In this document: one piece after another, positions 16,668-25,103 of the stretch | How the letters are laid out: every line of letters starts with the position of its first letter | Numbering within the stretch: position 1 is the first letter of the stretch | Source: Allocoleopsis franciscana PCC 7113 | GTDB lineage: Bacteria > Cyanobacteriota > Cyanobacteriia > Cyanobacteriales > Coleofasciculaceae | NCBI RefSeq assembly: GCF_000317515.1 | Contig: NC_019738.1 | Location: 5,110,001 to 5,174,000, forward strand | Length of the DNA stretch: 64,000 nt | Direction: 5' to 3' | Notes under the pieces: generated by a model | What the model was told of the DNA's origin: nothing | Databases searched by the model: none | What the model saw: the letters and a program-made list of their open reading frames with translations, nothing else | Made by a program: the position numbers and the translations under genes

Positions 16668-17067
16668 AGAGAGGTTTAATTGTGTGAGATGTGATAGACG
16701 CAGACCTTTCTTTGGTTATAATTCAAAATTTTTTCCTTCCCCCAAAATTACTTTAAAAAACATCACAAAAATTATGATTTCTTAATAAATTTGGGGGAAA
16801 TTAGTCAATCTATCTAAATTATGGACGTAGATAGGCTCAGCGTGCTAATTGGCTGCATAGCGCTTGTTAATGGCTTGTTAATTGATCGTAAAGGGCGATC
16901 GCGCACGGAAACACTAGGAAGCCACTTCCTGGTTCAAACATCACAATCGCGTAAAGATAGAGCCACGAACAAACCAGAAGTTACAATTGATACATTAGAA
17001 ATTTTCGACCCAAAACTGGGCATACTCACTTGACCCAGTCGTGTGCATTCCCATCCTTGGTAAACCG
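16668..17067. other. Divergent intergenic region, kinase / glycosyltransferase
   Basis: AT-rich near the kinase start. It contains one marked inverted repeat (16737-16799, listed separately) and a HIP1 site near 16898. A 70-codon frame at 16821-17033 has no recognisable features and is not called. Confidence 0.5.
16737..16799. repeat. Inverted repeat upstream of the hybrid kinase
   Basis: TTCCCCCAAAATT (16737-16749) and AAATTTGGGGGAA (16787-16799) match at 11 of 13 positions in inverted orientation, with a 37-base AT-rich spacer. It lies 70-130 bases upstream of the kinase start, where a regulator site or an RNA hairpin in the kinase leader could be. No T-run follows on either strand. Confidence 0.6.
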
Positions 17068-18078
17068 ATGGTCGTTGATTTGACTGTCGCCATCCCCACC
17101 TATAACGGGGCTAGGCGTCTACCAGAAGTTTTAGATCGATTGCAACTCGCTTACCAAGACGCGGCGTGCGTCACGCCTGATTCTGGGCAAACGCCCCAAA
17201 CGAATCACAGCCAAACATTCAGTTGGGAAGTCTTGGTTGTGGACAATAATAGTACCGACGACACCGCCCAAGTCGTTCAATCCTATCAAGCCAATTGGCC
17301 TCAATCCTGTCCTTTAAGATATTGCTTTGAGCCGCAACAAGGAGCCGCCTTTGCACGACGCCGCGCCTTTCAAGAAGCAAACGGTGTGCTGGTGGGTTTC
17401 CTGGATGATGACAATATCCCGGCACCGGACTGGGTAGCGGCGGCTTACGCCTTCGCTCAAGAACATCCGGCGGCAGGTGCTTATGGCAGCCGAATTCATG
17501 GGGATTTTGAGGTTACACCCCCAGAAAATTTTCATCGATTGGCTCCTTTTTTAGCGATTACCGAACGGGGTTCACAGGCACAACGATATGAACCGCAAAA
17601 CAAGGTTCTGCCCCCATCAGCAGGGTTGGTGGTACGTAAGCAAGCTTGGTTGGAGAGTGTTCCTCTACAACTGGTTTTGACGGGACGAACTCCAAGCAGT
17701 ATGTTGACCGGCGAGGATTTGGAGATGCTGGCTCATATTCAAGCGAAGGGGTGGGAAATCTGGTACAATCCCGCGATGCAAATTGACCACAAAATTCCCC
17801 ACTGGCGTCTGAAGCGAGAGTATTTAATTCCGTTTTTCCGGGGAATTGGGTTGAGTCGTTATGTGACGCGGATGCTGAGTGTGAAACCTGGGCAGCGACC
17901 TTTCGCCACTTTAGCTTATCTGGCAAACGATCTGCGAAAGATGGCTTTTCATTTGCTGAAATATGGCTTCCGGGTGCGCTCTGATTTGATTGCAGCTTGC
18001 GAAATGCAGTTGTTTGTGAGTAGTTTTATCAGTCCTTTTTACCTTTGGAGTCAGGGGTATTTGAATCAGAAAGATTAA
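17068..18078 (+). CDS. GT2 family glycosyltransferase, HpsE-like (first paralogue)
   Basis: A 336-residue GT-A fold transferase. The opening VDLTVAIPTYNGARRLPEVLDRL, the nucleotide-binding VLVVDNNSTDDTAQVV and the metal-binding DDD of GFLDDDNIPAPDWV are visible, followed by GEDLEMLAHIQAKGWEIWYNPAM. It resembles the HpsE-type enzymes that build hormogonium polysaccharide for gliding. The ATG at 17068 fits the paralogue's start; a GTG at 17041 would add nine residues. Between strand one and VVDNN it carries about 18 extra residues (YQDAACVTPDSGQTPQTNHS) not present in the neighbour, encoded by DNA with a 15-bp palindrome. Probably co-transcribed with the next gene. Confidence 0.85.
   Translation: MVVDLTVAIPTYNGARRLPEVLDRLQLAYQDAACVTPDSGQTPQTNHSQTFSWEVLVVDNNSTDDTAQVVQSYQANWPQSCPLRYCFEPQQGAAFARRRAFQEANGVLVGFLDDDNIPAPDWVAAAYAFAQEHPAAGAYGSRIHGDFEVTPPENFHRLAPFLAITERGSQAQRYEPQNKVLPPSAGLVVRKQAWLESVPLQLVLTGRTPSSMLTGEDLEMLAHIQAKGWEIWYNPAMQIDHKIPHWRLKREYLIPFFRGIGLSRYVTRMLSVKPGQRPFATLAYLANDLRKMAFHLLKYGFRVRSDLIAACEMQLFVSSFISPFYLWSQGYLNQKD
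17163..17177. repeat. 15-bp palindrome inside a glycosyltransferase gene
   Basis: GGCGTG-CGT-CACGCC, perfect 6-bp arms. It sits exactly in the stretch encoding residues absent from the adjacent paralogue, as expected for a small mobile palindrome inserted in frame. Confidence 0.6.
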
Positions 18079-18123
18079 CCCAGATTCCAGCATTCGGTGA
18101 CATCCTACCAGTGGTAACAAATT

Positions 18124-19176
18124 ATGTCAGTTGACTTTACGGTTGCAATACCAACGTATAACGGGGAAAACCGATTACCTAAGATTTTAGAGCGACTGCG
18201 ATCGCAAATGGGTGTCGCTCACCTCAAGTGGGAAATCATCGTCGTTGATAACAATAGTCAAGATGCTACAGCCAAGGTGGTTTCTGACTATCAAGGAATG
18301 TGGTTGGGTTCTGGGCGATTGAGATATTGTCTAGAACCGCGACAAGGAGCCGCTTTTGCTCGCATCCGCGCCGTACAAGAAGCCCGCAGTGAGTGGGTGG
18401 GTTTGCTGGATGATGATAACTTGCCCGCCTTGGATTGGGTGGCTGCGGCTTATGCCTTTGGTCAAACTTACCCTCAGGCGGGTGCCTACGCAAGTCAAAT
18501 TCACGGTGACTTTGAAGTGGAACCGCCCCCCAACTTTGAGCGAATTGCGCCATTTTTGGGGATTACGGAACGGGGGCAACAACCGCATCGGTATGAACCC
18601 AATCAGCTTAAATTACCGCCTGGGGCGGGGTTGGTGGTTCGTAAACTAGCTTGGTGCCAAGCCGTTCCTCCACAACCGATACTTAAGGGTCGATTGGGTC
18701 AGTCGTTGGTTGGGGGTGAAGATTTGGAACCACTACTACACCTGCACAAAGCGGGTTGGGAAATTTGGTATAACCCAGCCATGGAAACCTATCACCAAAT
18801 CCCTCGTTGGCGCTTGGAGAGAGGTTATTTAATTAGCCTGTCGCGGGGTGTAGGTTTGAACAGTTGTTGCCTGCGAATGATGAATACGCCGTTTTGGCAA
18901 CGGCTAAATGTTTTGAGTAGAATATTTTTTGGCAGTCTGCGTCGGTTAGTTGTACACCTGTTACGATATCGGACTACATTGCTGGAAGCGGCAAAGGCAC
19001 AATCGTCGTTCAATAATTTAGTGGAGGCTTGCGAACTGGCCTTCTATTGGGGTTATTTACTCAGCCCATTTTATTTTTTTCAAACTAGCTTAGCCCGAAA
19101 CATCAGCTCGTTATCCTTGGGACAAAATACTGGCGGTGTCAGAAACTCGGCTTTCTCTACTAAGGCTAATTTTTAA
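18124..19176 (+). CDS. GT2 family glycosyltransferase, HpsE-like (second paralogue)
   Basis: A 350-residue paralogue of the preceding gene, 45 bases downstream. Shared landmarks are DFTVAIPTYNGENRLPKILERL, EIIVVDNNSQDATAKVV, QGAAFARIRAVQEA, GLLDDDNLPALDWV, and GEDLEPLLHLHKAGWEIWYNPAME. Two weakly hydrophobic segments near the C-terminus suggest membrane association. The C-terminal 25 residues are serine/asparagine-rich and unlike the first copy. Tandem duplication followed by divergence is clear; the two may add successive sugars of one polysaccharide. Acceptor and donor are unknown. Confidence 0.85.
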   Translation: MSVDFTVAIPTYNGENRLPKILERLRSQMGVAHLKWEIIVVDNNSQDATAKVVSDYQGMWLGSGRLRYCLEPRQGAAFARIRAVQEARSEWVGLLDDDNLPALDWVAAAYAFGQTYPQAGAYASQIHGDFEVEPPPNFERIAPFLGITERGQQPHRYEPNQLKLPPGAGLVVRKLAWCQAVPPQPILKGRLGQSLVGGEDLEPLLHLHKAGWEIWYNPAMETYHQIPRWRLERGYLISLSRGVGLNSCCLRMMNTPFWQRLNVLSRIFFGSLRRLVVHLLRYRTTLLEAAKAQSSFNNLVEACELAFYWGYLLSPFYFFQTSLARNISSLSLGQNTGGVRNSAFSTKANF

Positions 19177-19789
19177 AACGTTTTGGGATTAGGGATACAA
19201 CATTGAATTATAATATTCCATTTTTTTGTGAAAAAGCGATATCCATTGAGGTAGAGTCAGGATGTAATACAGGGGAGTTGGGCCGGAGCTTTAGTGAGGA
19301 CTGGGGAGAAAAATACTAGATTTGGTATGAAGTGTCAAAAAATATGATAAGGCTCTATTTGTGAAGAAATATTCTGTAATTGATGATAGCAATCGATTCA
19401 TCTGGAATTTTTTAAAGACTAGATGAAGCCGGTTTGACTCTGTTGCTCATCGTCAGTGATTGACCTATCATACAAATGACGTATTACAAGTTGTACAGGT
19501 ATCTTACAACTTTGGTGAGTTCTCGGACTGAAAGCATCGAGAGCGCAACGACTCCTCACTGGCTGAGTCTCTCTCATCTCTCAGTTCCTGAGAGTACTTG
19601 TTGCTGGGACACAAGATGGAGCAAAAGGGGATATAAGGATAATTCCACCGTTGCTTCTCGGTACATCTGCAAGTTTGGGACGAGGCTGAAGATGGAAGCC
19701 GTTCACATAGCCAGGTTAGTATACTGCATAACTTGTTGGGATTTTTGTTAGCGAAAACGTTACTAAATTATCTTTGCGAGGAATTATTT
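19177..19789. other. Gene-poor region with promoter and leader A
   Basis: Over 600 bases with no convincing gene. A 91-codon frame at 19476-19751 overlaps leader A but has the composition of non-coding sequence. The second half looks structured: several short hairpin arms (GAGTCTCTCTCATCTCTCAG region) lie between leader A and the small gene at 19790, consistent with a long 5' untranslated region. Confidence 0.5.
19443..19536 (+). promoter_or_regulatory. Promoter plus conserved 5' leader, copy A
   Basis: A -35-like TTGCTC (19443-19448), 17-base spacer and -10-like TATCAT (19466-19471) precede a 56-base block (19481-19536) that aligns without gaps to 20618-20673 at 41 of 56 positions. The block begins about nine bases after the -10, where transcription would start, and opens with the palindrome TACAA-G-TTGTA. 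The most conserved parts are TCTTACAA and the last twelve bases, GGACTGAAAGCA. Confidence 0.55.
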
Positions 19790-20068
19790 GTGGCGTTCAT
19801 TCGACTCGCAGATCTAATCATTAACCTTGACTGTATTGCCGCAGTTAGATTCAGCACATATAACGGATTGGGGGATGGGAAAGATATCCCAATTGTTAAT
19901 ATTTGTTTGACGATTCCTGAGGGTTCATTAGATGGATCATCAGAATGTTCTCTTAAAGATTGTGAAAATTGCCAGTGTGTAGAAAAGCTAGAGTTCGAGA
20001 GCGATTTAGCACTTGCCATCTGGGATTACTTTACCCAATCAACGGATGTCACTGTTCTATTTGAGTAG
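19790..20068 (+). CDS. Small conserved-type cyanobacterial protein of unknown function
   Basis: A 92-residue soluble protein starting at GTG 19790 with GAGG eight bases upstream. It opens FIRLADLIINLDCIAAVRF, has a strand-like IPIVNICLTIP and closes KLEFESDLALAIWDYFTQSTDVTVLFE. That layout (an 'INLD' strand pair, then a helix containing W-x-YF) resembles a group of small cyanobacterial hypothetical proteins. A central CSLKDCENCQC cluster of four cysteines might bind metal or form disulfides. It stands alone, 250 bases downstream of leader A. I do not recognise a function. Confidence 0.6.
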   Translation: MAFIRLADLIINLDCIAAVRFSTYNGLGDGKDIPIVNICLTIPEGSLDGSSECSLKDCENCQCVEKLEFESDLALAIWDYFTQSTDVTVLFE

Positions 20069-20802
20069 ACCGATAGGAGTTGGTGGTTTTGTATACACTT
20101 AACGGTAGGAACACCATCATTTTACCCCCAAAAAAACGCTCATTTTTAATGAAAAAACCGCCTTCATTCGGATGAGATACCACGGTTGATTTTGATGGTT
20201 TAACCTTTAGAGGCTTCACACCTAGCCTTGTAGAGTGTTCATGGTGTTCATTTTCCCAACGTGTTTTTACGATCTGAATATAAGCATTGTGGAATATGCG
20301 GAGTTGCTCGTTTAGGAGTCACAAGTGAGAAGTTCAGAACACGGCTGACAAATGTTCTGATTTTGATGCGATCGCGGCTCAATGAGCAAAGGAACTCAAG
20401 ACTCTAAGGATATAGAGAAACTGGGAATAAATTTTTGATGAAGAATTTTCTGCCTCTTGTCTCACTCACGCTTCCGTTCTAGCCGTCTTGGTGTCTTCTC
20501 CCCCATCACTCATCCCTAATCTATGATCCCCTGAGTAGCTAGTCATTTATGAAGACTCCATAAATCCTAGAGGATGTAGTTGCGAAGCGTCCCGCAAGTG
20601 TCTTATGATGCTATAGTGTAATACATGTTATACGTCTGTCTTACAAATTCGACCATTTCAGGGACTGAAAGCAAGAGACTAGCCATCTCAGCTCTTGGAT
20701 TCAGCTCTGGCCTAGGTTGTACACCACCAGGGTTATCTATCGTTTCCGCTCCAATTTCACTGTTCCTTCCTGAATGTGGTGTTTTTTTTAGGTAGTACTA
20801 CT
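20069..20802. other. Gene-poor region with promoter and leader B
   Basis: More than 700 bases without a convincing gene in either strand. The first 300 bases are AT-rich with short A and T runs. A HIP1-like site is near 20370. The promoter/leader module B starts near 20580 and is listed separately. Confidence 0.5.
20580..20673 (+). promoter_or_regulatory. Promoter plus conserved 5' leader, copy B
   Basis: A -35-like TTGCGA (20580-20585), 18-base spacer and -10-like TATGAT (20604-20609) precede the 56-base block 20618-20673, the partner of leader A. The block starts eight bases after the -10, the same geometry as in copy A. It ends 130 bases before the ATG of the next small gene. Homology begins at the predicted start of transcription, suggesting that the RNA rather than the promoter is conserved. 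Confidence 0.55.
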
Positions 20803-21117
20803 ATGAGTCTCTCCAAGTCAGAACAACAGTCCAGCAACCTGAAGCCTGAGCATTCTAATTACGTAACTCGCGAGGAATTGCGAGAATTCGACCTCAATAA
20901 CCAACTCGCCAAATTGGCACTTCCTCTAGCCCAGGCGTGGAGAGACAATCATCCCAATGCTCAACCCGGTTCCGAAGAAGATTTGGACGAATGTGTATTA
21001 ACTGTAGCGATTGAAATGGCTGTAGCTGGCGAAGCAGTCGGAGGCCCGATGGGTGCTCTGATTGCGGCTGGTGGTGGCGTCGCCGCAGCGAGTGTGGCTT
21101 GTAGGCGAGTGCTCTAA
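20803..21117 (+). CDS. Small protein with acidic leader and Gly/Ala-rich hydrophobic tail
   Basis: A 104-residue protein. Residues about 1-65 are hydrophilic and acidic (LREFDLNNQLAKLALPLAQAWRDN, then PGSEEDLDECV); residues about 70-104 are hydrophobic and rich in Gly and Ala (MAVAGEAVGGPMGALIAAGGGVAAASVACRRVL). A charged leader, Gly-Gly positions and a small hydrophobic cysteine-containing end are what bacteriocin or other ribosomal peptide precursors look like, but a small membrane-inserting protein with a glycine zipper fits too. No maturation enzyme or exporter lies in the window. The ATG at 20803 is preferred over a GTG nine codons upstream. Confidence 0.6.
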   Translation: MSLSKSEQQSSNLKPEHSNYVTREELREFDLNNQLAKLALPLAQAWRDNHPNAQPGSEEDLDECVLTVAIEMAVAGEAVGGPMGALIAAGGGVAAASVACRRVL

Positions 21118-21629
21118 AAGACTTTTTCCAAAAAAAATTCCTGAGGTAACCCAGACTTGACTTCTACAGTGGAGGATGCCCACGTTGACCAAGTTTTTGT
21201 GGGGTTGGCTGTGCAGGTTGTAGAAGGTTTGACACGTTTGATGTCTGCCGGAGACCCAAATTTCTGAAACACAATCTGAAACACAAGTTGTGTCAGGTCT
21301 AGTTCTCGAATTATACCGGGTGTACTCTCTCATCTTCGAGCAATCGGAGCTGGTGCAGGATGAGTCAGCTCACGACAGCAGGGGCTTAAAGCACTACCAA
21401 AGGCAATCGTCGCATCGCGCTCTTGCTCCTGATGGAGCCGCTAGTCTAGTGCATTGCCGCCTAGGGTGATCGACCTGTCGTCGCCCTTGTTTGAAGCACT
21501 CATGCTTCCTGCAACACGATTATGTACTAGCCTGCTTCGTCTATTGATCCGTTGTGCGTGACCAATCGGCTTTTGCGCTGCAATTTTTCAGATCTTACCC
21601 CTTTACTATCCCTTCGAGGAGACTGCTTC
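21118..21629. other. Intergenic region upstream of the chemoreceptor
   Basis: About 500 bases with no clear gene. A 37-codon open stretch (21154-21267, ending VEGLTRLMSAGDPNF) looks protein-like but has no good start and could be a gene remnant. A direct repeat CTGAAACACAA occurs twice (about 21264-21286). The stretch 21340-21520 is GC-richer and may be the receptor mRNA leader. Confidence 0.4.
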
Positions 21630-24600
21630 ATGGCTACTCAATTTGATCCAGATCCAAAAGCTTATAAGCAAGAGTTCAATGGACTAGGGAAAGAGTCCCA
21701 GAAGGCTGTTAATCAAAATAGTTTCAATATGTATGGCAACAACCAACCCGATCTTCAGTTGGTTTCACCCCAGTCCGTACTCAATGCTGTTGAGCATCAA
21801 CAACTTGGTGGGTTTGTTACGGCGGCGAACCCGGCAAAATCTGGCGGTTTCCAGTGGCGGAACCTGCGCTTAACCCAAAAAGCTACAGCTTTAGCGATCG
21901 CTTTAGGCACCCTTCCCGTATTACTGACTGGAGTCACCGCCTATCAATTTGCCAACCGATCCATTACCGAGCAAATTACCCAGTCTAAAATCTCCAGCGT
22001 TGCCAGTATGCAAGACAAGGTCAATCGCTTTATGCGTGACCGTTATGGGGATATTCAAATCCTAGCCAATCTTCCCGTGTTAACGAATCCGTCCCAGAGG
22101 GACACCACACCGTTGGGGGAAAAGCAATCGCAACTGGATCGCTTTATCGCGGCTCACAAAGTCTATGACCTGATTTCCGTGGTCGATCTCAACGGTAATG
22201 TGATTGTCCAAACCAAAGGTCTAGAACCGATTCCCAACCAACGCGAGCGCGAGTATTTTCAGGAAGTCCTCAAAACCAATCAGCCTGTTATCAGTGATGC
22301 TATCATCCCCAAAGTATCCAAGAATCCTGAACGACTGACCCTTCACTTCGCTGCACCCGTTAAAGATAGCGCCACTGGCAAAACCATCGCTGTGATTCGA
22401 GCGCGTATGCCGGTCACCGCCTTAGAAGAGCAGCTTCAAACCTTTGGGGCAAATGGCGATGAATTTCTTTTGATTGATTCCTCAACCAAGAACATTTTTC
22501 TAGCCAAGGACAAGAATCTTGAAACTAAAGAACCTTCGGCTGTCTTTTCCGAATGGGATAAACGACCCGCGACAGAAAAGCCCAATAGTTTGATCGTTCA
22601 CCATAAACCTACCAATGATCGCGAATTGATCGCCTATACCAAATTCGGACAAGTCGAAGGATTACCCACCCTGGATTGGGAAGCCGTTATTGCTATACCG
22701 ACAGACATCGCCTTTGCCTCACAGCGACAATTGCTTCTGATTTTGTCCTTGGGAACAGGCTTGACAGCCTTGTTGGTGAGTGCTCTTGCCGTTTATCTAG
22801 CTAAACTAGCGACCCGTCCTGTACTCGCTGTCAGTGATGCCGTGGAAAAACTGGGGCAAGGGGAACTGTACACCCGTGTTGCCGTGGAAGGGCAGGATGA
22901 ACTGGCTGAACTGGGTTCTAATATTAACCTGATGGCCAGCCGACTGGAGACTTTATTGTGGGCACAAGCCGCTGAAACCGAGCAAGCCGGTTTATTTGGA
23001 GATATTGCTGTCTCCAATGCTCGTACCGAGAAAGATTTAGAAGATGTCTTTGAAAAGGGTGTTCAAGGAGCGCTACGCATCCTAGAAGCGGATCGGGTTG
23101 TGATCTATCGCCTCCATCCGGACGGGCGTGGATACATTTCCGCAGAAGCGGTTGTTCCCGTGTGGCCCAGAGCACTCGGTGCAAAAATAGAAGACCCTTG
23201 CATCGGCAAGGAACTCCTAGAAGAGTACAGACAAGGGCGTGTGGTGCCGACCAATAATGTTTATGAAGCGGGTTTTCACCCTGATCACCTGAGGTTAATG
23301 GATCGGCTGCAAATCAAGGCCAATTTAGTGACTCCTATTCTCAAAGATGGTCACCTGTTTGGCTTGCTGATTGCTCATCATTGCAGTAACCTCCATATCT
23401 GGCAACAATCCGAAATCAATTTCCTCAAAGAGTTAGCCATTCGAGTTGGACTTTGTTTGGATCGGGTGAGTTTCCTGGAGCAGAAAGAAGTCGAAACATT
23501 GCGAGCACAGCAACTCCATGAAATCACCTCGACTATCCGGGATGCCTTTAGCCCTGAAGACATCTATCAAACGGCAATTGCAGGTGTGCGCGAAGCATTG
23601 CAAACGGATCGAGCGGTTGTCTATCTATTTGATGACAAGTGGCAAGGCACCATCGTGGCAGAATCAGTCGGAATGGGCTGGCCAAAAGCCCTGGGAGCCA
23701 ACATTACTGACCCTTGTTTTGCGGATAAATATGTTGAAAAGTATCTACAGGGTCGAGTTAAAGCCGTTGAGGATATTTACGAGGCGGGTTTAAGTAACTG
23801 TTATATGGGTCAACTGGAACCGTTTAAGGTTCGGGCGAATTTAGTCGCTCCCCTTTTGGCTTATAATAAACTGCACGGCTTACTGGTCACCCATCAATGT
23901 TCCAACACACGCGCTTGGCAGGAGTCAGAAATTACCTTCTTTAAGCAGGTGGCGACTCAAGTCGGTCTGGCTTTAGACCGCGTGGATTTCTTAGCACAAA
24001 TTGAACAATCACGCCACAAGGCTGAAACCTTAGCAGACGTACAACGGCAACAAAAAGAAACGCTGCAACAGCAACTTTTAGAACTGCTCAGTGATGTGGA
24101 AGGAGCCGCTCAAGGTGACCTCACGGTGCGTGCAGATGTGACCACTGGGGAAATTGGCACGGTAGCAGACTTTTTCAATGCCGTCATTGAAAGCCTGCGG
24201 GAAATCGTCACCAAAGTGAAAACAGCGGCGGGTCAGGTCAACACTTCATTGGGAGAAAACGAAGGGGCAATCCGTCAGCTTTCGGAGGAAGCCCTGAAAC
24301 AGGCTGAGGAAACGACCCGTACTCTGGACTCGGTTCAAGAAATGACCCTTTCCATTCAACAGGTCGCCAAAAATGCTCGTCAGGCCGCCGTTGTCGCCCG
24401 CACCGCTTCTACGACGGCTGAAGCGGGGGGGATAGCGATTGATCGATCTGTCCGAAATATCTTTACCCTGCGAGAGACAGTAGCAGAAACCGCCAAAAAA
24501 GTCAAGCGACTGGGTGAATCTTCTCAAAAGATTTCTAAGGTTGCTTCACTGATTGACCAAATCGCCCTGCAAACGAACTTACTCGCGATCAACGCCGGGA

Positions 24601-25055
24601 TTGAAGCGGCACGGGCCGGTGAAGAAGGTCAGGGCTTTGCGGTGGTTGCGGAAGAAGTCGGGGAACTGGCAGCGCGAAGTGCGGCAGCAACGCGAGAAAT
24701 TGAAGAGATTGTTCACAACATCCAAAAAGAAACGACGGAAGTGGTCGAAGCGATGGAATTGGGTACCAGTCAGGTGGTAGAAGGAACCAATCTGGTAGAG
24801 GATGCCAAGCAAAGCTTGCATAAGATTCTGGATGTGTCTCGCGAAATTGATGATTTGGTGCAATCGATTTCAACGGCGACGGTGACTCAAGCGGAGACCT
24901 CACAAGCTGTTACTGAGTTGATGAAAGAGATTGCCCTAGTCTCGGAACGTACCTCTAATTCCACACGCAAAGTGTCTGGTTCTCTCAAAGAGACAGTAGA
25001 GATTGCTCAGGAATTGCAGGCATCAGTGGGTGCCTTCAAAGTTGACGGACTCTAG
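21630..25055 (+). CDS. PixJ-like methyl-accepting chemotaxis protein with two GAF domains
   Basis: A 1141-residue membrane chemoreceptor. TM1 at about 86-108, an extracytoplasmic sensor domain (dCache/CHASE-like, about 110-365), TM2 at about 366-390, HAMP, GAF1 (about 457-613), GAF2 (about 629-787), a second HAMP (about 820-870) and an MA signalling domain with the hairpin tip [20 protein letters not shown]. The layout matches cyanobacterial phototaxis receptors such as PixJ. GAF2 has Cys724 at the bilin site ([10 protein letters not shown]); in GAF1 the equivalent position is Asp (FHPDHLRLM). The ATG at 21630 has GAGGAG eight bases upstream. No che or pil genes adjoin it, so its CheA/CheW partners are elsewhere. 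Confidence 0.93.
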
Positions 25056-25065
25056 GAGGTGATAA

Positions 25066-25103
25066 AAAACCCCGCCTAACTCTCAGGAATTAGACGGGGT
25101 TTT
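25066..25103. terminator. Bidirectional rho-independent terminator
   Basis: AAAACCCCGCCTAA (25066-25079) pairs with TTAGACGGGGTTTT (25090-25103), with an A-run on the left and T-run on the right. It therefore terminates the chemoreceptor from the left and the PAS protein gene from the right. Confidence 0.85.

What the first reader, a model, noticed from the sequence alone, without database searches (positions are those of the whole stretch)
19443..20673. Two related promoter-plus-leader modules, each ahead of a small orphan gene
Seen: 19481-19536 and 20618-20673 align without a gap over 56 bases at 41 identical positions, with near-identical ends (TCTTACAA; GGACTGAAAGCA). Each block starts 8-9 bases after a -10-like hexamer (TATCAT, TATGAT) with a -35-like TTGC hexamer 17-18 bases upstream. 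So the homology starts where the RNA would start and lies in the leader. The downstream genes are unrelated in sequence. Inference: a shared regulatory RNA element or leader-binding factor controls both; this could be an undescribed cis-regulatory RNA family.
Basis: partly seen in the sequence, partly recalled or inferred. Interest (0 to 1): 0.66.

Follow-up and report, generated by a model that had tools for sequence, protein, structure and literature searches.

The report
Family-wide promoter and RNA-leader cassette
Two short look-alike stretches ahead of small genes turn out to be copies of a roughly 100-270-base control cassette (promoter, repeated 7-base boxes and an apparently folded RNA leader) that one family of filamentous cyanobacteria uses about ten times per genome ahead of unrelated genes, and that matches no RNA family in Rfam.

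Summary
In detail: 19481-19536 and 20618-20673 match at 41/56 positions without gaps; 100 dinucleotide shuffles of the region reach at most 34. It is part of something larger. Each block lies in a cassette: upstream element TTTTTAAAGACTTGATAAAG, -35 TTGCTG, -10 TAnnAT, boxes GTAATAC-N2-GTCATAC-N2..6-GTATGAC at the predicted RNA start, then a long leader. A pattern scan of 84,980 species found it only in Coleofasciculaceae-type cyanobacteria. A profile finds about 11 copies in this genome and 65 in the loci studied. The next gene is on the same strand at 56 of 62 sites: chemotaxis receptors, creatininase, TPR, P-domain and orphan proteins. About half the leaders share hairpins P2-P4 and AGGGUUAUCUA. 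P2 and P4 covary above controls, but a held-out test did not show that structure aids detection. The 56-base block itself shows no RNA covariation and looks like promoter-proximal operator. Most likely: a lineage-specific regulon controlled by an unidentified DNA-binding factor, with a structured leader as a second layer. No Rfam match.

The parts
19415..19427 (+). copy A: upstream element AAGACTAGATGAA (consensus TTTTTAAAGACTTGATAAAG)
   Evidence: AAGA..T.AT.AA kept across copies; AAGA lies 28 bp before the -35 in 35 of 44 scored sites
19443..19448 (+). copy A: -35 TTGCTC
   Evidence: TTGC invariant in the 16-site alignment; spacer 17-18 in 39 of 42 scored sites
19466..19471 (+). copy A: -10 TATCAT (predicted RNA start about 19478-19480)
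   Evidence: TA..AT kept in nearly all sites; start is inferred, not mapped
19481..19507 (+). copy A: boxes GTATTAC, GTTGTAC, ATCTTAC
   Evidence: box logo GTAATAC-N2-GTCATAC near-invariant over 51 sites
19508..19789 (+). copy A: rest of 5' leader, beginning with the shared GGACTGAAAGCA (19525-19536)
   Evidence: conserved between G000 and G001 up to the gene apart from an insertion in G001; no P3 motif
19790..20068 (+). gene A: 92-aa acidic protein, no Pfam/NCBIfam/PHROG family
   Evidence: close orthologues only in the same taxonomic family among 148 genomes, plus three weak homologues elsewhere
20552..20564 (+). copy B: upstream element AAGACTCCATAAA
20580..20585 (+). copy B: -35 TTGCGA
20604..20609 (+). 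copy B: -10 TATGAT (predicted RNA start about 20616-20617)
   Evidence: start inferred, not mapped
20618..20644 (+). copy B: boxes GTAATAC, GTTATAC, GTCTTAC
   Evidence: MFE fold; P2 covariation 0.238 against 0.168 +/- 0.016 shuffled
20714..20757 (+). copy B leader: P3 region with the conserved AGGGTTATCTA (20729-20739)
   Evidence: motif at about +92 to +136 in roughly half of 65 sites; P3 pairs in 80.6% of cells but does not covary beyond shuffles
20720..20789 (+). copy B leader: long-loop hairpin ACACCACCAGG/CCTGAATGTGGTG followed by T8, just before the gene B start
   Evidence: MFE folds; paired sequences kept in B copies of other genera; attenuation is inference
20803..21117 (+). gene B: 104-aa protein, predicted three helices, no known family
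21552..25055 (+). ORF for a GAF/methyl-accepting chemotaxis-type protein downstream of gene B
   Evidence: ORF; same gene order in relatives; domain naming by eye, not by family search

Best explanation
The two blocks are two copies of a promoter-operator-leader cassette used by Coleofasciculaceae as the common switch of a dispersed regulon of about ten transcription units. RNA polymerase uses the TTGC...TAnnAT promoter. A factor at TTTTTAAAGACTTGATAAAG, about 28 bp upstream of the -35 and resembling a tandem TAAAG repeat, probably assists it. A DNA-binding regulator at the GTAATAC-N2-GTCATAC-GTATGAC boxes at the RNA start switches initiation or early elongation. In a subset of targets, B included, the long leader folds into hairpins P2-P4 around AGGGUUAUCUA and adds a second, RNA-level control. 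In B a hairpin with a T8 run just before the start codon could act as an attenuator. Shown: the shared architecture, its recurrence, its position ahead of same-strand genes, its restriction to one family, and covariation of P2 and P4 above the controls used. Inferred: the regulator, the sign of regulation, the function of the leader, and the transcription starts.
For: 41/56 match beyond shuffles. Strict promoter+box pattern scanned in 84,980 species: 11 loci, all Coleofasciculaceae-type genomes. Profile R1: E down to about 1e-25 in the family, none at 1e-4 in the genomes outside the family among 195 searched. 56 of 62 next genes on the same strand. Orthologous targets in several genera: A, B, Y, creatininase, P-domain, TPR, NTF2-like, chemotaxis. 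Fixed upstream spacings and near-invariant boxes. G000/G001 conservation at copy B rises from 44% at -150 to 82% at -100 and 92-98% from 0 through the gene. Leader model R2 finds only the same family plus one probable chance hit among 243 genomes, and several hits start where a weak R1 match ends. P2 and P4 covary above shuffled and slid controls on alignments not fitted to the structure.
Against: No transcription data; the regulator is not identified. Many leaders (A, P-domain, TPR, part of Y) lack P3 and P4. Structure does not clearly improve detection of held-out copies: R2 gives more bits but R3 mostly gives lower E-values (the two models are weighted differently). Leader folding z-scores average only -0.86 against -0.14 upstream. 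Between G000 and G001 the creatininase P2 stem is partly broken. The -10-to-box distance varies by about 6 bp, which is unusual for one fixed operator.
Confidence: 0.65

Rival explanations
1. It is chiefly a cis-regulatory RNA (riboswitch-like or protein-binding leader); the boxes are the 5' part of the RNA and the promoter is carried along with it.
For: P2 and P4 covary; AGGGUUAUCUA recurs near +110 ahead of unrelated genes; boxes 2 and 3 can pair with a variable loop in many copies; in B, P3 and the hairpin before T8 cross each other.
Against: Boxes show no covariation; A and several target classes lack the leader motifs; the promoter itself is conserved with fixed spacing, which an RNA would not require; held-out test not decisive.
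Confidence: 0.15
2. It is a DNA regulon only (promoter plus operator for one transcription factor); leader similarity is residual homology from duplication of the promoter region.
For: Promoter and boxes are the universal part; box logo near-invariant; leaders diverge in A and others.
Against: P2 and P4 covariation and the AGGGUUAUCUA block are kept about 110 nt into the RNA ahead of unrelated genes in different genera.
Confidence: 0.14
3. The cassettes are multicopy genes for a small non-coding RNA; the downstream genes are incidental.
For: Own promoter; at G000 6396 and its G001 counterpart the module faces an opposite-strand gene and an inverted repeat follows; leaders up to about 1 kb.
Against: 56 of 62 next genes on the same strand with recurrent orthologous targets; conservation runs continuously into the gene.
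Confidence: 0.05
4. A mobile repeat or a recent local duplication spread the block.
For: Two copies 1.1 kb apart in the window; dispersed copies.
Against: Copies sit ahead of orthologous genes in several genera and are diverged; no plasmid match; no transposase noted beside the copies examined.
Confidence: 0.01

Closest known systems
SigJ-dependent J-Box promoter of hormogonium genes (Nostoc punctiforme, PMC6495340)
   Same: Shared promoter motif of a cyanobacterial regulon that includes motility genes
   Different: J-Box is GGGaAtacT as an extended -10 with a weak -35; here the -35 and -10 are of sigma-70 type without GGG and the conserved boxes lie at the RNA start
RpaB HLR1 operator and NtcA site (recalled from general knowledge)
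   Same: Short tandem or dyad TAC/GTA-type boxes near the promoter
   Different: Spacing and sequence differ: GTA-N10-TAC here against GTA-N8-TAC for NtcA; third heptamer at variable distance
Riboswitch and other structured leader families in Rfam
   Same: Recurrent, apparently structured leader ahead of unrelated genes in one lineage
   Different: No Rfam 15 match for window leaders or for the copies in ten other loci; the promoter is part of the conserved unit
7-2-7 heptamer sites of NarL/LuxR-type regulators (recalled)
   Same: Two 7-mers separated by 2 bp with overall dyad symmetry
   Different: Sequence differs; a third heptamer; no regulator found

Membership tests
SigJ J-Box promoters | GGGaAtacT extended -10 | tested here: not met
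   -10 logo TAnnAT; no GGG conserved before it
Known Rfam cis-regulatory RNAs | covariance-model match | tested here: not met
   no match at gathering score nor up to E 5 for 19350-20850; only unrelated hits in ten loci
Sigma-70-type promoter | -35 and -10 hexamers 16-18 bp apart | tested here: met
   spacer 17-18 bp in 39 of 42 scored sites; TTGC and TAnnAT conserved; activity not tested
Cis-regulatory leader | located ahead of a same-strand gene, conserved into it | tested here: met
   56 of 62 sites; continuous conservation; transcription not tested
Structured RNA element | compensatory base changes in helices | tested here: inconclusive
   P2 and P4 exceed shuffled and slid controls, P3 and boxes do not; shared ancestry can inflate the scores; held-out test not decisive
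NtcA regulon | GTA-N8-TAC site | tested here: not met
   boxes give GTA-N10-TAC
NarL/LuxR-type operator | binding by a NarL/LuxR-type regulator | not testable with these tools
   no regulator or binding data

The most novel reading that the evidence does not exclude
An undescribed cis-regulatory RNA family fused to a dedicated promoter-operator: a lineage-specific cassette in which an unknown factor at heptamer boxes controls initiation and the leader senses a signal, jointly controlling chemotaxis receptors and several unknown proteins.
Probability: 0.4. Interest if true: 0.78.

Novelty: new variant of a known kind. Interest (0 to 1): 0.6.

Why it matters
It would define a family-wide regulatory circuit of mat- and soil-forming filamentous cyanobacteria that is absent from Rfam and was not found in the open literature searched. 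It ties chemotaxis receptors and several proteins of unknown function to one control, and it offers a concrete motif to test in strains such as the window's own organism. A cassette that keeps promoter, operator and leader together ahead of unrelated genes is uncommon and would help explain how lineage-specific regulons arise.

Tried and rejected
Looking for copies only with the 56-nt block or with TTACAA-N15-GGACTGAAAGCA: two in the own genome, the two expected in its congener, and scattered weak matches elsewhere, because that end of the block is not the conserved part. SigJ J-Box: rejected by sequence. Known Rfam family: rejected. RNA hairpin formed by the boxes (box 1 or 2 with box 3): 88% paired but no covariation, not accepted as shown. 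Phage or plasmid origin: no plasmid match; ten viral pattern matches were not examined and are about what I would expect by chance. Structure of gene A low confidence; gene B three helices without a significant PDB relative. RNAalifold on the long leader alignment returned no structure, so helices were assigned by eye from individual folds and then counted. Literature searches returned nothing on this element. The R2 hit in G039 has no boxes upstream and no same-strand ORF and is treated as chance.

Full report
What was checked. The two blocks match at 41 of 56 positions without gaps, more than 100 dinucleotide shuffles of the local sequence produce (maximum 34). G000, the window's assembly, has 7,966,510 bases with a main contig of 7,470,429; from my own knowledge this suggests Allocoleopsis (Microcoleus) PCC 7113, which I did not verify.

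Finding further copies. The 56-nt block alone finds only the two copies in the genome. In a congener (G001) and a second genus (G011) both blocks stand ahead of orthologous genes A and B in the same order. Comparing these six copies showed what is kept: TTGC, TAnnAT and GTAnnACnnGTnnTAC-N7-TTAC; GGACTGAAAGCA is not kept in G011. A pattern built from this, scanned over 84,980 bacterial and archaeal species, hit 11 stretches, all from Coleofasciculus, Symplocastrum, Limnofasciculus or cyanobacterial MAGs, at least two of which are genomes of the window's family. The box pattern alone in 389 genomes of the order hit six genomes, all of the window's family. The reversed control pattern also gave scattered single hits there, so the box pattern alone is not fully specific and the profile is the better evidence.

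A regulon. A sequence-only profile of 16 copies found further copies in most genomes of the family. In the window's genome these lie at C1 positions 1041793, 1207526, 1608792, 1627269, 3123173, 4292901, 5072790, 6396110, 6397049 and the two window copies (the 6397049 and 5072790 copies only at E about 1e-4). No genome outside the family reached E 1e-4 among 195 genomes searched. Sixty-five sites were read in detail.

Anatomy. Over non-redundant sites, AAGA of the upstream element lies 28 bp before the -35 in 35 of 44; the -35/-10 spacer is 17-18 bp in 39 of 42; box 1 begins 5-11 bp after the -10; box 2 follows box 1 after exactly 2 bp; box 3 usually 4 bp after box 2, range 2-6. Fixed spacing of the upstream parts is typical of DNA-level promoter architecture. 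Between G000 and G001, conservation at copy B rises from 44% at -150 to 82% at -100 and 92-98% from 0 on, into the gene.

Targets. At 56 of 62 sites with a callable gene, the next gene is on the same strand (ORFs of at least 90 codons, longest first, so a simple gene caller, and orthologous sites are counted separately). Recurrent targets: gene A; gene B followed by a chemotaxis-type receptor; Y, an unknown protein; creatininase (PF02633); TPR proteins; P-domain proteins (PF01483) with leaders of about 0.7-1.1 kb; an NTF2-like protein named by eye; PilJ-like chemotaxis receptors; and a response-regulator protein ahead of a CheW-like gene. The opposite-strand cases include one locus where the module faces a 92-101-aa gene, seen in G000, G001 and G004.

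Leader. About half the copies share a leader with hairpin P2 ahead of +105, P3 around AGGGUUAUCUA near +110, and in part of them P4. On sequence alignments not fitted to structure, P2 has a covariation score of 0.238 against 0.168 +/- 0.016 in shuffles and at most 0.167 when slid; P4 0.324 against 0.201 +/- 0.030 and at most 0.202 slid; P3 does not exceed shuffles; pairing between box 1 and box 3 or box 2 and box 3 does not covary. Helices were chosen after looking at these sequences and the sequences are related, so these numbers overstate the evidence. An alignment-free fold test gives a mean z of -0.86 for +35..+130 in 57 leaders against -0.14 in 51 upstream controls, a modest difference. 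A model of the leader with structure finds the same family and one probable chance hit among 243 genomes; several of its hits begin where a weak promoter match ends, an independent link between promoter and leader. A sequence-only version detects held-out copies equally well, so the structure is not proven.

Mechanism. The parts kept in every class are the promoter and boxes; the leader is kept in a subset. I therefore place the primary switch at transcription initiation, by a DNA-binding factor at the boxes that overlap the predicted RNA start, most simply a repressor or roadblock, with an activator or accessory contact at the upstream element. The leader is a second layer in targets such as B, where P3 and a hairpin followed by T8 cross each other and cannot both form except as a pseudoknot. 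The T run is interrupted in some relatives, so attenuation is only a hypothesis.

Known systems. It is not the SigJ J-Box, not NtcA by spacing, and has no Rfam match. Searches of the open-access literature returned nothing on it; most subscription papers were not searchable.

Verdict.

Noticed in passing
L096 1671-2130 and its L107 counterpart; L118 459-920: A module faces an opposite-strand gene for a 101-aa (92-aa in L118) protein in two genera; in L096 an inverted repeat AAGGACGATTTAGC...GCTAAATCGTCCTT follows at about +250, and its loop reads roughly as the reverse complement in the congener.
   Followed up: partly
L100, L104, L111, L117, L127, L131, L141, L144: P-domain genes have leaders of roughly 0.7-1.1 kb downstream of the module, conserved between G000 and G001; content unexplained.
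   Followed up: partly
L134 2007-2083: CyVA-1 small RNA (RF02965) within about 1.5 kb of a module copy; probably incidental.
   Followed up: no
window 17041-19176: Two adjacent glycosyltransferase-like ORFs about 72% identical in parts, an apparent tandem duplication.
   Followed up: no
L117, about 155-250 bp upstream of its module: A strongly folding segment, z -4.97.
   Followed up: no
L158 (G002) and L113 (G005): Leader-like sequence ahead of chromate-transporter-like genes (named by eye) with weak or no boxes.
   Followed up: partly
window 25066-25103: Inverted repeat with a 4-nt gap between the chemotaxis-type ORF and the convergent next gene, terminator-like.
   Followed up: no
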